The notes below the pieces were generated by a model that ran no database searches, was not told where the DNA came from, and worked only from the letters and a program-made list of their open reading frames with translations. A stretch of 34,346 nt of DNA, taken from contig JAQBTV010000012.1 in the NCBI GenBank assembly GCA_027624715.1, positions 1 to 34,346 on the forward strand, read 5' to 3'. Positions 30,037-34,288 of the stretch are shown here, in pieces (the first letter of the stretch is position 1; every line of letters begins with the position of its first letter). Source of the stretch: Pseudomonadota bacterium. Its GTDB lineage: Bacteria; Pseudomonadota; Gammaproteobacteria; Burkholderiales; Eutrophovitaceae. The translations under genes were made by a program, and so were the position numbers.

Positions 30037-30243
30037 TCAAAATAACACTGATGATTCGTAATACTCAGCCGCATTAAACTAATCTTGCTTAACATCTTGA
30101 CCCAAGTAGTACATAACCCCTAGGCTGTAACACGCAGCTGCATCACCCTAGTCACAATCACGTTTCCAAGCATTTACGTCATCAACCTCTGCAAAACATG
30201 TGCTAGCAAATAACAGTATCAGTATTGGCGCTAGTTTATTCAT
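30037..30243 (-). pseudogene. Broken Sel1-repeat gene, diverged paralogue of the gene at 31516-32319
   Basis: From ATG 30243 the minus strand reads MNKLAPILILLFASTCFAEV, a complete signal peptide, then an AWKRDCD segment, an amber stop, GDAAACYSLGV, a YYLG-QD segment, a second amber stop and an AAEY segment, after which similarity fades and a TGA closes the frame at 30037. This parallels residues 3-63 of the intact Sel1/TPR protein, with Asn and Tyr codons replaced by TAG. A strong ribosome site (TAGGAGGG) remains before the ATG. Only the first Sel1 repeat survives; the TPR part is gone. It lies just upstream of the FAH-family gene, whose ribosome site is next to the remnant. Confidence 0.82.
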
Positions 30244-30376: not shown

Positions 30377-30631
30377 AATTTATTAACACCTTAATGGGAG
30401 CTCACCTTTAATCGTAACTGAGTTGCTCTGCTCGTCAAGCATTGAGCTGCTGTATTGCAGTTAAATCAATAGTGTGTATTTGGTACTTGCCGAAAAAAGG
30501 TAGGAGATATTCGTTGATTACACACCCATAGTCTTTATGACTAACTTTTTCTTATCTTTCTTTGCGCTGCGCCATAGCGTCTCAATGTAAAACAACTGAT
30601 AAAGAAAATGTATAGTAGGTGTACCCTGGCG
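30377..30631. other. Intergenic stretch without recognised features
   Basis: Together with 30244-30348 this forms most of the gap between the Sel1 pseudogene and tRNA-Lys. I find no credible coding frame, no repeat array and no further Sel1 or MORN remnants. The base composition is A+T-rich like other intergenic regions of the window. Confidence 0.4.
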
Positions 30632-30677: not shown

Positions 30678-30753
30678 TGGTAGGCGGTGCGAGATTCGAA
30701 CTCGCGACCAATGGATTAAAAGTCCACTGCTCTACCGGCTGAGCTAACCGCCC
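30678..30753 (-). tRNA. tRNA-Lys (anticodon UUU), CCA encoded
   Basis: The minus strand holds a full cloverleaf of 76 bases. The acceptor GGGCGGT pairs with ACCGCCT (G1-U72 wobble), the D-loop contains AGCCGGTA, the anticodon loop is CTTTTAA with anticodon TTT at 30718-30720, and the T-arm has GTTCGAATC. Discriminator A and an encoded CCA follow. It has its own promoter and terminator. In many proteobacteria tRNA-Lys genes lie near cpoB and queC, as here. Confidence 0.97.
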
Positions 30754-30838: not shown

Positions 30839-31519
30839 CTAAACATAAACAGTCGGGTCATCAATGCCGGCGTCTAAAAAACCTTCCTTACGAATTCGGC
30901 AAGAGTCACAGATCCCGCAAGCAGCCCCAAGGGGGGATGCTTGATAACATGAAACTGTTTGACTGAAATCAACACCTAACTTGTATCCGAGCTTAATGAT
31001 GTCAGCTTTTTTTAAATCAATTAACGGTGCGTGAATTCGAAACCCAGAACCCTCAACCCCAGCTTTTGTAGCTAAATTTGCGACGTTCTCATAAGCCTTT
31101 ATGTACTCGGGCCGACAATCCGGATAACCTGAATAATCAACTGCATTCGCACCGATAAATACATCCTGAGCACCAAGTACCTCTGCCCAACCTAATGCAA
31201 TAGAGAGCATGATAGTGTTTCGAGCGGGGACGTATGTGGAGGGGATTCCAACTGATTTTTCAGTTGGAATCTGTTGGCTAGAATCCGTCAAAGAAGATCC
31301 TCCTAGAGCTGCCAAATCCACCTTAATAATTTTGTGCTCAACCGCGTTAAAATGAGCGCATAGGCTTCTTGCGGAATTCAATTCTGAGATGTGTCGTTGG
31401 CCATAATCAATTGAGAGGGTATGACACAAAAAGTGTTTTGACTGCGCATAGGCAATGGTAGTGGCGGAATCTAATCCTCCAGAGACCAGAACAACCGCTT
31501 TGGCTTGCTCAATACTCAT
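30839..31519 (-). CDS. queC: 7-cyano-7-deazaguanine synthase QueC
   Basis: ATP-dependent conversion of 7-carboxy-7-deazaguanine to preQ0 in queuosine synthesis. The 226 residues have the PP-loop [12 protein letters not shown] near residue 10, the [15 protein letters not shown] helix, [17 protein letters not shown] and the C-terminal zinc-binding Cys cluster (SCYQ, then CGICDSC). The ATG at 31519 overlaps the stop of the Sel1/TPR gene (ATGA at 31516-31519), so translation is coupled; an in-frame TTG at 31528 is less likely. queE and queD are not in the window. Confidence 0.96.
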
Positions 31520-32319
31520 GGAGCGCAACGCCTTTTTAATTCTGCGAGCCTAATCTGAGCCAGCATTTGGTTTGTTGCTTCTTGATCACTACTGCAAATT
31601 TTTTCTGCTTCAATTAAGTATTTTCCGGCAGCACTACACTCACCCCTCTCAACATGAATAATCCCTGCCTCCAACATGGCTGCACAGTGCTTATTATGGT
31701 TCTTAAGGCGCGGTAACAATTGGGTCAATACAGTTAACGCCTGTTGGCTTTGTCCAGGCTCCTTATTCAATCCGATTGCGGCCCAGTACATTCCACTTTT
31801 AGCATATTGATTGTCAGGAAACTTCTCGTTGAGTGCATAAAATAGGTTTATAGCTTCTTTATAACTGCCTTTATCGAATAACTTGTTTTTCGCGTATTCA
31901 TAGAAAGCCTTTGCATCATTTTCGTCGCCCAAAGGAGGAGGAGCACTGTCGATAGAAATTTCCAATGGTTTGATATCTTTAGTCGCACGAGGCGGTCGAC
32001 CACCCGAATAGCCTTTTTTGTAAGCTTCAATCGCTTTAGAATAATCTTGCGTAACACCGTTTCCATTTTCGTACGCAAGTCCTAAGTTGTAACAGGCAAG
32101 TGCTTCACCACCCTCACAGCCTTTTTGGGAATACGCAGCCGCTTTAAAATAATCTTGCGTAATACCTTCACCACCCGTGTAGTAAACAAGTCCTAAGTTG
32201 AAACAGGCATTTGAATCACCGTTATCACAATCACGTTTCCAAGCCTTTAAGTAATCAGACTTAGCAAAACAGATGCTAGTAAATAACAGCATCAGTACTG
32301 CCGCTAGTTTATTCGTCAA
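31516..32319 (-). CDS. Exported Sel1-repeat/TPR protein in the position of CpoB
   Basis: Secreted protein of 267 residues. A signal peptide (1-19, ending CFA) precedes two Sel1-like repeats (about 26-105) with Cys pairs spaced as C-x7-C (31/39 and 68/76), as in disulfide-stabilised Hcp-type Sel1 proteins. A linker rich in Pro (106-132) leads to TPR-like helices (about 133-265) resembling the C-terminal half of CpoB/YbgF, for example [21 protein letters not shown]. CpoB coordinates peptidoglycan synthesis and outer-membrane constriction and often precedes queE/queC, so a CpoB-like role is plausible but not shown. The start is TTG at 32319 after AGGAG; the related pseudogene has ATG where this gene has ACG. 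Confidence 0.78.
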
Positions 32320-32503: not shown

Positions 32504-34288
32504 TTACTCAATATTCTCGAACATGACTTTTTCTTCTGTCATCTCTTGCATTTGAGCTGACGTCATCCAGCAAGAGATGTAGTACGTCCCCTTTGTGATC
32601 TGATCACTAAGCTGACGCTTGTTAACAACTGAATCAGCCTCTTGGATCATGTTCACACGTTGACTATCGAGAATGCTACGGACGACACTCGACTTGATAC
32701 CAAAATTAGTATTCTCCGGAATAACGCCATGCTCATCTATTGCAAATTTTAAATCTAATTTTGCAACAGCAACCGCTATGACATTTCCAAATTCATCGAG
32801 AATGGGTCCGCCACTGTTCCCTGGTTGTAGTGCTGCATCAATTTGAATTTGTGAAAAATTATTTCCTAGTCCAGACTGAGCACTGACAATACCTTTCGTA
32901 ATTTTTATAGCTGAATTAAATGTCTCCCCAAACGGGAATCCCGCAACATAGACATCCTCCATCAACCCGGGGTTATCACGCCTAATAGGAAACACATGAT
33001 CCGGGGAAAAATCACCCTTCAATAAAGCTAAATCATTCTGCGTGTCGTAAGCTACAATCGTGACTGGGACAGCAACACCCTTATGGTGAATCACAACATT
33101 CTGACAGCCTTTGATCACATGATTGTTTGTAATGACATAGCCTTCTCGTGATACTGCAAAGCCACTGCCTGAGGAAGCCTGTAGCAGATCATTACTATCC
33201 GCTCTGCGTTGTTCTTCTACTGTAGGCCACTCGATGGCTACGCCGTCTCTGAATTCACCGACATATTTATCGCCATTTGCAGATGTTAAGGTGCCTTGAC
33301 CGTGATACTTATCGTGTCTCCATTCACCGACATATTTGTCACCATTTGCATATGTTAAGGTGCCTTGACCGCGATACTTATCGTCTCTGAATTCACCGAC
33401 ATACTGAGCACCATTTGCATATGTGTAGGTGCCTTGACCGTGGAACTTGTCGTCCCTGAATTCACCAACATACTGGGCACCTGCCCATTGTGATTCAGAA
33501 CCAAACATAAAGATACCTTGACCGTGCTTCTTATCGTCTCTGAAATCACCGACATACTGGTTACCATCTGCATATGTGTAGGTGCCTTGACAGTTATGCC
33601 AACGCACTTCAAGATCTTGTGGGCATAGAGGTAACGCATATTCCGCTCCACGCTGTTCTTCTACTGAAGGCCCCTCGATGGCTACGCCGTCTCTGAATTC
33701 ACCGACATATTTATCGCCAGTTGCAGATGTTAAGGTGCCTTGACCGTGATACTTGTCGTGTCTCCATTCACCGGCATATTTGTCACCATTTGCATATGTG
33801 AAGGTACCTTGGCCGTGATACTTGTCGTCTCTGAATTCACCGACATACTGAGCACCATTTGCATGTGTGTAAGTGCCTTGACCGTGGTACTTGTCGTCTC
33901 TGAATTCACCGACATACTGGGCACCTGTCCATTGTGATTCAGAACCAAATATAAAGATGCCTTGGCCGTGCTTCTTATCGTCTCTGAATTCACCGACATA
34001 TTTATCACCATTTGCTAATATGTAGGTACCTTGACCGTGGTACTTGTCGTCCCTGAATTCACCAACATACTGGGCACCCGCCCATTGTGATTCAGAACCA
34101 AATATAAAGATGCCTTGACCGTGCTTCTTATCGTCTCTGAATTCACCGACATACTGGTTACCATCTGCATATGTGTAGGTGCCTTGACAGTTATGCCAAC
34201 GCACTTCAAGATCTTGTGGGCATGGAGGTAACGCATATGCGGACGATACGCACGTCATGGTGGCTATCAGTAACAGTAGCTTGTTCAT
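32504..34288 (-). CDS. Secreted MORN-repeat protein with C-terminal trypsin-like (S1C) protease domain
   Basis: A 594-residue exported protein. Residues 1-19 form a signal peptide (cleavage likely after AYA). Residues 34-348 contain 12 MORN units (YVGEF/YVGEW followed by HGQGT), organised as two related modules (18-213 and 217-361), each opened by a C-x10-C element (CPQDLEVRWHNC). Residues 372-545 are a chymotrypsin-fold serine protease of the HtrA/S1C type with triad His390 (TNNHVI), Asp419 (NDLALL) and Ser492 (QPGNSGGP). No PDZ domain or membrane span follows; the tail (546-594) is unassigned. Start ATG 34288 is chosen for the signal peptide although the frame is open to the window edge. 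The substrate is unknown; MORN repeats often bind lipids or scaffolds. Confidence 0.85.
   Translation of the reverse strand: MNKLLLLIATMTCVSSAYALPPCPQDLEVRWHNCQGTYTYADGNQYVGEFRDDKKHGQGIFIFGSESQWAGAQYVGEFRDDKYHGQGTYILANGDKYVGEFRDDKKHGQGIFIFGSESQWTGAQYVGEFRDDKYHGQGTYTHANGAQYVGEFRDDKYHGQGTFTYANGDKYAGEWRHDKYHGQGTLTSATGDKYVGEFRDGVAIEGPSVEEQRGAEYALPLCPQDLEVRWHNCQGTYTYADGNQYVGDFRDDKKHGQGIFMFGSESQWAGAQYVGEFRDDKFHGQGTYTYANGAQYVGEFRDDKYRGQGTLTYANGDKYVGEWRHDKYHGQGTLTSANGDKYVGEFRDGVAIEWPTVEEQRRADSNDLLQASSGSGFAVSREGYVITNNHVIKGCQNVVIHHKGVAVPVTIVAYDTQNDLALLKGDFSPDHVFPIRRDNPGLMEDVYVAGFPFGETFNSAIKITKGIVSAQSGLGNNFSQIQIDAALQPGNSGGPILDEFGNVIAVAVAKLDLKFAIDEHGVIPENTNFGIKSSVVRSILDSQRVNMIQEADSVVNKRQLSDQITKGTYYISCWMTSAQMQEMTEEKVMFENIE
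33206..33640 (-). repeat. MORN module 2 (5 units) of the protease gene
   Basis: Second copy, residues 217-361, with five MORN units, one of them the long FGSESQW form. It begins YALPLCPQDLEVRWHNC, parallel to YALPPCPQDLEVRWHNC just after the signal peptide, and ends with VAIEWPTVEEQR parallel to VAIEGPSVEEQR of module 1. The protease domain follows at once. Confidence 0.85.
33650..34237 (-). repeat. MORN module 1 (7 units) of the protease gene
   Basis: First copy of the internal duplication, residues 18-213. It holds seven MORN units: plain units of 23 residues and two longer ones of 28 that include a FGSESQW insert. It is 51 residues longer than module 2, exactly one plain plus one long unit. 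DNA identity with module 2 is high at both ends, and the first block starts at the signal-peptide cleavage site. Confidence 0.85.

What the first reader, a model, noticed from the sequence alone, without database searches (positions are those of the whole stretch)
32504..34288. Secreted fusion of 12 MORN repeats to an intact trypsin-like protease
The sequence shows a signal peptide, 12 MORN units and an S1C-type protease with a complete His390/Asp419/Ser492 triad in one protein. MORN repeats are best known as cytoplasmic or membrane-proximal scaffolds; an exported bacterial protein that couples a long MORN beta-sheet to a protease and lacks PDZ domains suggests a surface- or lipid-targeted regulated protease. 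It neighbours a Sel1/TPR envelope protein. Function is inference; the architecture is read directly.
Basis: partly seen in the sequence, partly recalled or inferred. Interest (0 to 1): 0.62.

Follow-up and report, generated by a model that had tools for sequence, protein, structure and literature searches.

The report
Exported MORN-repeat trypsin-like protease
This bacterial gene encodes an exported protein-cutting enzyme carried on a sheet of twelve MORN repeats, and it belongs to an unnamed enzyme family, frequent in ocean bacteria, that swaps different repeat arrays onto the same cutting unit.

Summary
On the minus strand at 34288-32504 one uninterrupted 594-residue protein has a signal peptide, 12 MORN units (7+5, in two blocks that each begin with the same two-cysteine cap) and an S1 trypsin-like domain with His390, Asp419 and Ser492; Pfam finds no PDZ. 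It is not a one-off. Of the best 80 loci in a scan of named genomes, 18 join MORN repeats to the same protease family and 9 join Sel1 repeats; a prophage carries the two modules in reverse order. All three triad residues are present in 100 of 100 aligned members. The family has a C-terminal extension that none of the 60 listed PDB sequence hits covers, and a cysteine pair (Cys395, Cys573) that are the only domain cysteines in 85 of 100 members; I read it as a disulfide stapling the tail to the core. Best mechanism: a PDZ-less, HtrA-like periplasmic protease whose repeat array recruits a substrate or partner. Lipid or surface targeting is not specifically supported. Sel1-trypsin and MORN-metacaspase fusions are in print; six literature searches containing MORN showed no MORN-S1 fusion. 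New variant of a known kind.

The parts
32504..34288 (-). whole gene, 594 codons plus stop
   Evidence: open frame; Pfam
34232..34288 (-). signal peptide, residues 1-19, predicted cleavage after A-Y-A
   Evidence: read from sequence; hydropathy; no predictor run
34181..34231 (-). cap 1, residues 20-36 (LPPCPQDLEVRWHNCQG), two cysteines
   Evidence: the same cap precedes MORN arrays in 17 of 19 other MORN-protease members (16 by pattern, L133 by eye)
33674..34183 (-). MORN array 1, about residues 36-205, 7 units
33584..33634 (-). cap 2, residues 219-235, internal copy of cap 1
   Evidence: residues 18-116 and 217-315 are 272 of 297 bases identical
33230..33586 (-). MORN array 2, about residues 235-353, 5 units
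32660..33181 (-). S1 trypsin-like catalytic core, residues 370-543
   Evidence: Trypsin_2 374-506; AlphaFold2 10-residue pLDDT means 77-98; HtrA1/DegS Z 19-20
33119..33121 (-). catalytic His390
   Evidence: 100 of 100 members
33032..33034 (-). catalytic Asp419
   Evidence: 100 of 100 members
32813..32815 (-). catalytic Ser492 in GNSGG
   Evidence: 100 of 100 members
33104..33106 (-). Cys395, five residues after the catalytic His
   Evidence: invariant in 79-member alignment A3
32507..32659 (-). C-terminal extension, residues 544-594: helix 557-567, strand 568-576, helix 577-584 in the model
   Evidence: pLDDT means 92-98 for residues 551-580; none of the 60 listed of 122 PDB hits extends past profile position 184 of 237
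32570..32572 (-). Cys573 in the C-terminal strand, proposed partner of Cys395
   Evidence: bond not observed
31516..32319 (-). downstream neighbour: Sel1 repeats fused to a duplicated cpoB C-terminus
   Evidence: Pfam Sel1 2e-12; 95.4% identity over 153 bases to the cpoB end on contig C7

Best explanation
The gene makes an exported, probably periplasmic, serine protease of the S1C (HtrA-like) type that has no PDZ domain. Its N-terminal half is two capped MORN beta-sheets that serve as a recruiting scaffold: they hold a substrate, or a cell-envelope partner, next to the catalytic domain. The catalytic domain carries a family-specific C-terminal extension that folds back and is, I propose, fixed by a Cys395-Cys573 disulfide beside the catalytic His loop, taking the place that a PDZ domain holds in HtrA. 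The family keeps the protease constant and swaps the repeat module (MORN, Sel1, others), so the repeat decides what is cut and the job differs between lineages. Shown here: architecture, intact triad, recurrence, swapping, the conserved cysteine pair. Inferred: export, the disulfide, proteolytic activity, recruitment by the repeat.
For: Domains and triad. Recurrence: MORN in 20 of 100 aligned members including the window, 18 of them among the best 80 of 514 confirmed relatives in named genomes, Sel1 in 19 of 100, PG_binding_1 in 8, PDZ_2 in 2. Swapping on the protease tree: the MORN label needs at least 8 changes, 3 of them forced by supported branches, and Sel1 9 (4 forced); the window's group mixes MORN, Sel1 and pentapeptide members. 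The same two modules occur in reverse order (protease then cap then MORN) in L216, whose flanks match tail fibre, endolysin and integrase families, so the pairing is not an accident of one fusion. Fold: MORN1 and DegS are the leading PDB matches of the full model; HtrA1 Z 19.8 and DegS Z 19.4 for the protease alone. Cysteines: exactly two in the domain, both at 395/573, in 85 of 100 members.
Against: No activity, localisation or binding was measured. Export rests on reading a signal peptide. The paired absence of both cysteines (8 of 100) is one event on the tree (C395 2 changes, C573 1; independent-pairs test has no power), and three members (L037, L038, L047) keep only the tail cysteine. Array length varies from 2 to 20 units by the local profile, and two MORN members (L066, L067) begin inside the array with no visible cap or signal, so a fixed geometry is unlikely. 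Gene neighbours of 17 MORN-protease loci show no constant partner (the commonest Pfam family is in 4 of 70 neighbours).
Confidence: 0.5

Rival explanations
1. The MORN array is an anchor rather than a substrate receptor: it fixes the protease to lipid headgroups, lipopolysaccharide or peptidoglycan, and substrate choice lies in the catalytic pocket alone.
For: MORN was named for membrane occupation; 8 of 100 members carry a peptidoglycan-binding domain in other positions of the family; the window gene lies beside a Sel1-CpoB chimera and queC, next to where sister genomes keep cpoB.
Against: TbMORN1 did not bind lipid vesicles in vitro according to passages of PMC7725318. Sel1 and pentapeptide modules, which substitute for MORN in close relatives, are not lipid binders by general knowledge.
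Confidence: 0.25
2. It is a redox-gated protease in the manner of MarP: the Cys395-Cys573 staple holds the active conformation and its reduction switches the enzyme off, the MORN array only placing it.
For: NCBIfam MarP is the second-best model (E 8.3e-22, 77.7 bits, far under its cut-off of 250). The MarP structure 3k6y (Z 18.6, 168 residues) is the only one of 50 listed matches whose range runs past model residue 192, to 234. PMC4992679 passages say that MarP has a disulfide near its C-terminus that stabilises the active site.
Against: In MarP the partner cysteine (214) lies before the catalytic His, as I recall His235, whereas here it is five residues after it, so the two staples are not the same bond. 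A structural disulfide with no switching explains the conservation equally well.
Confidence: 0.15
3. An effector or cargo gene: a mobile-element-borne secreted protease used against other cells or phages, with fast-changing MORN arrays as recognition parts.
For: A prophage carries the reversed fusion; L209, from the viral collection, has a caspase-FGE-sulfatase gene and a Sel1 gene on the same strand nearby; the window copy has an internal duplication and sits where 7 of 7 sister genomes with queC have cpoB directly adjacent; an integrase-like remnant (E 9.7e-4, below the cut-off) lies by tRNA-Lys 0.8 kb beyond queC. A decayed relative is present in one sister genome.
Against: PADLOC matches are only the generic trypsin part. 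Relatives are chromosomal in many marine lineages. No immunity-like partner recurs.
Confidence: 0.1

Closest known systems
HtrA/Deg proteases (DegS, DegP, HtrA1; MEROPS S1C as I recall)
   Same: S1 core, triad order, GNSGG, best solved folds
   Different: no PDZ domain; N-terminal MORN arrays; conserved C-terminal extension and cysteine pair; under every NCBIfam cut-off
MarP (Rv3671c), periplasmic S1 protease
   Same: PDZ-less, tail cysteine, 3k6y aligned from 13 to 234 of the model
   Different: [quoted passage not shown] partner cysteine at another site
Tryp-(Sel1)6 architecture, survey of prokaryotic serine proteases 2008 (PMC2605481, passages)
   Same: trypsin-like domain joined to a tandem repeat; the family here also has Sel1 members
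   Different: one protein, Sel1 not MORN; the term MORN does not occur in that main text
MORN-metacaspase fusions in aquatic bacteria (PMC4933709, one table passage)
   Same: MORN or Sel1 repeats before a peptidase in aquatic bacteria
   Different: caspase-fold cysteine peptidase instead of S1 serine protease

Membership tests
Trypsin-like S1 peptidase | Trypsin fold domain above curated cut-off | tested here: met
   Trypsin_2 94.4 bits against 27.6; HtrA1 Z 19.8
Trypsin-like S1 peptidase | His/Asp/Ser triad in order | tested here: met
   His390, Asp419, Ser492, each 100 of 100
Trypsin-like S1 peptidase | proteolytic activity | not testable with these tools
   needs an assay
HtrA/Do (DegP/DegS/DegQ) | at least one PDZ domain after the protease | tested here: not met
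   no PDZ in Pfam scan; PDZ_2 in only 2 of 100 relatives
HtrA/Do (DegP/DegS/DegQ) | NCBIfam cut-off of TIGR02037 or DegS/DegQ models | tested here: not met
   88.5 bits against 416.2 and lower for the rest
MarP family | NCBIfam NF033740 cut-off | tested here: not met
   77.7 bits against 250
MarP family | disulfide from the C-terminal tail to the core | tested here: inconclusive
   conserved cysteine pair, but other position and no bond measured
MORN-repeat protein | repeats above Pfam gathering score | tested here: met
   235.6 bits against 22.5
MORN-repeat protein | lipid binding (often assumed) | not testable with these tools
   not shown for this protein; disputed in PMC7725318
Known anti-phage defence protein | match to a defence model outside the generic trypsin part | tested here: not met
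   all 5 PADLOC matches lie within residues 368-510

The most novel reading that the evidence does not exclude
A large unnamed family of exported, PDZ-less serine proteases in SAR11, SAR116, SAR86 and other ocean bacteria replaces the PDZ of HtrA by two devices: a disulfide-stapled C-terminal tail that gates the active site according to redox state, and an interchangeable N- or C-terminal repeat (MORN, Sel1, pentapeptide) that reads a specific envelope signal. The MORN form would then be the first case of a MORN sheet acting as a protease's sensor outside the cytoplasm.
Probability: 0.2. Interest if true: 0.72.

Novelty: new variant of a known kind. Interest (0 to 1): 0.5.

Why it matters
MORN repeats have no settled function. 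Here a MORN array is welded again and again, in both orders, to one catalytic domain whose activity can be assayed, which turns 'what do MORN repeats bind' into a testable question (what does the protease cut with and without the array). The protease family occurs in some of the most abundant ocean bacteria and has no name in NCBIfam; its tail and cysteine pair suggest a way to regulate an HtrA-like core without PDZ.

Tried and rejected
Artefact or frame error: rejected, the frame is open and the architecture recurs in independent contigs. One-off fusion in this species: rejected, although within the window's surroundings it is rare: no full-length match in 100 relatives; in 369 genomes of the class only L040 and the window among the 13 loci I examined (L036-L048; I left the other 16 fetched loci, L049-L064, unexamined because they match only the front of the model) had MORN; of 21 further loci from 398 genomes of the phylum sample none had MORN and 5 had Sel1. 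No plasmid record (751 with a match) or phage record (18) covers 80% of the protein.

Plasmid hit H13 (one piece across residues 201-542) was fetched but gave no GNSGG frame on the strand looked at and stays unresolved. Plasmid hit H3 is annotated 'peptidase C13', so MORN next to another peptidase class, not followed further. Gene-neighbour analysis gave nothing constant. L011 and L097 are one gene counted twice. The claim that a VIA range beyond 192 means a shared tail is not made: a range gives end points only.

Literature: searches that contained MORN are (listings of at most 20, out of 64 and 1,165 papers); I read passages only of PMC7725318, PMC4933709, PMC7159879, PMC2605481 and PMC4992679. 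The structure paper of MarP is not held. InterPro architecture lists were not available, and may well list this combination.

Two of my own notebook lines are wrong and are mended here: 'cpoB next to queC in 8/8' is 7 of 7 sister genomes, and protease pLDDT '92-98' is 77-98 over the core.

Full report
Observation. The minus-strand frame 34288-32504 encodes 594 residues without interruption. Pfam gives MORN at E 1.6e-72, Trypsin_2 at 1.4e-26 over residues 374-506 and no PDZ. Twelve MORN units are present by motif, seven at residues 46-194 and five at 245-342; Pfam's own count of stretches is nine. Residues 1-19 read as a signal peptide (for hydropathy; no predictor was run). The contig ends 58 bases upstream and the frame is still open there, so the start is likely but not proven.

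The MORN region is an intragenic duplication. A cap, LP-x-CPQDLEVRWHNCQG, stands at residues 20 and 219. Residues 18-116 and 217-315 are identical at 272 of 297 bases, the last part of both arrays at 336 of 363, and a further 51-residue step inside array 1 at 144 of 162 (periods 444 and 153). Block duplication of cap plus array is not unique to this gene: L070, L077, L079, L080, L084 and L095 show more than one cap-like match (pattern search; some matches in that output are chance).

A family, not a one-off. They come mostly from marine alpha- and gammaproteobacteria by record title (SAR116, Pelagibacteraceae, Rhodospirillaceae, SAR86, Halieaceae, Porticoccaceae), the closest at 63% identity over the whole 240-residue C-terminal half. 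On a quick protease tree of 97 rows the MORN label needs at least 8 changes (3 forced by supported branches) and Sel1 9 (4 forced); the window's nearest rows are MORN members, but the same branch holds Sel1 and pentapeptide members. Repeat modules have therefore been exchanged on one catalytic domain. In the window's own surroundings the MORN form is rare (see Tried and rejected).

Reverse order. Among 19 relatives in the viral collection, two have MORN by the local profile. L216 has the protease first, then the same kind of cap (LPPCPSDTSVLWTNCVGT) and a MORN array; its neighbours match tail fibre, endolysin and integrase families, so it is prophage cargo. L209 has MORN then protease, near a caspase-FGE-sulfatase gene and a Sel1 gene; I did not test whether its contig is truly viral. 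The same pairing in both orders argues that cap-MORN and this protease work together.

Tail and cysteines. AlphaFold2 gives mean pLDDT 79.3 for the whole protein and 10-residue means of 77-98 from residue 361 to 580, including a C-terminal helix-strand-helix at 557-584; arrays have weak stretches below 50 at the GSESQW insertions, so the relative placement of arrays and protease (pTM 0.52) is not reliable. The protease alone gives pTM 0.82 and aligns with HtrA1 (Z 19.8) and DegS (Z 19.4), ranges ending at residue 186-192 in 49 of 50 rows and at 234 in one, MarP 3k6y (Z 18.6). No listed PDB sequence hit (60 of 122) passes profile position 184 of 237. Cys395 and Cys573 are invariant in the 79-member alignment A3. 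In A2, 86 of 100 have both, 8 neither, 3 only Cys573, and 3 only Cys395, the last three being cut off by contig ends. In 85 of 100 they are the only cysteines of the domain. Against over-reading: the joint absence is one event on the tree, so co-variation is not an independent test; and no distance could be measured.

Context. Downstream lie a Sel1 gene whose second half duplicates the end of cpoB (95.4% over 153 bases to the cpoB end at the start of contig C7; C7 carries tolQ, tolR, tolA, tolB and pal-like genes upstream, read, TolB and OmpA domains) and queC. In 7 of 7 sister genomes with a queC match, cpoB lies directly next to queC. So in the window's genome the MORN-protease and the chimera probably lie in a tol-pal-cpoB-queC region that was rearranged. 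The two contigs do not overlap, so their adjacency is unproven. One sister genome has a MORN-less relative with 44% identity (L011) and a decayed fragment with 73%.

Mechanism. I judge a recruiting role of the repeat most likely (0.5): modules with different fold but a common habit of binding protein partners substitute for each other in front of an unchanged protease. Lipid anchoring (0.25), MarP-like redox gating (0.15) and a mobile effector (0.1) remain. S1 pocket by position: Leu487 stands where DegP has Ile205 (alignment recalled, not run), which would suit small aliphatic P1 residues.

Novelty. Passages read: Tryp-(Sel1)6 in the 2008 survey PMC2605481, whose main text has no MORN; MORN- and Sel1-metacaspase in PMC4933709. 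Six searches containing MORN listed no paper on a MORN-S1 fusion; open-access papers only, titles and abstracts seen. I call it a new variant of a known kind: known domains, known type of repeat-peptidase fusion, an unreported pairing in a family without a name.

Noticed in passing
window 31516-32319 (-) and L158 3-623: Sel1 repeats fused to a duplicated cpoB C-terminus, while the ordinary cpoB lies at the broken end of contig C7; the assembly probably broke at this repeat.
   Followed up: partly
window 30055-30243 (-): Fragment with two TAG stops, 56% identical to the first 65 residues of the Sel1 neighbour, between queC and an FAA-hydrolase gene: a decayed relative.
   Followed up: no
window 30430-30580 (-), next to tRNA-Lys 30678-30753: Stop-riddled remnant resembling an integrase N-terminal domain (E 9.7e-4, 19.8 bits under the 22.6 cut-off) by a tRNA gene: possible old integration site.
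   Followed up: partly
L002 1477-2187 (-), contig C11 of the same genome: 237-residue MORN protein with an N-terminal hydrophobic segment and the same cap (CPEDRAVTWNNCQGT), 61% identical to the window's array over residues 19-177: a likely relative or donor of the array.
   Followed up: no
L209 1071-7636: Same-strand cluster of a caspase-FGE-sulfatase-SH3 protein, MORN-protease and Sel1 protein on a contig from the viral collection.
   Followed up: partly
L031 1115-1351 (sister genome G004): Isolated decayed piece of the protease C-terminal half, 73% identical, between a nitroreductase-like and a MarR-like frame as read by eye.
   Followed up: no
L135, SAR116 member: N-terminal part reads like a PDZ domain before the protease, the reverse of HtrA order (by eye; PDZ_2 in 2 of 100 by Pfam, members not named).
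   Followed up: no
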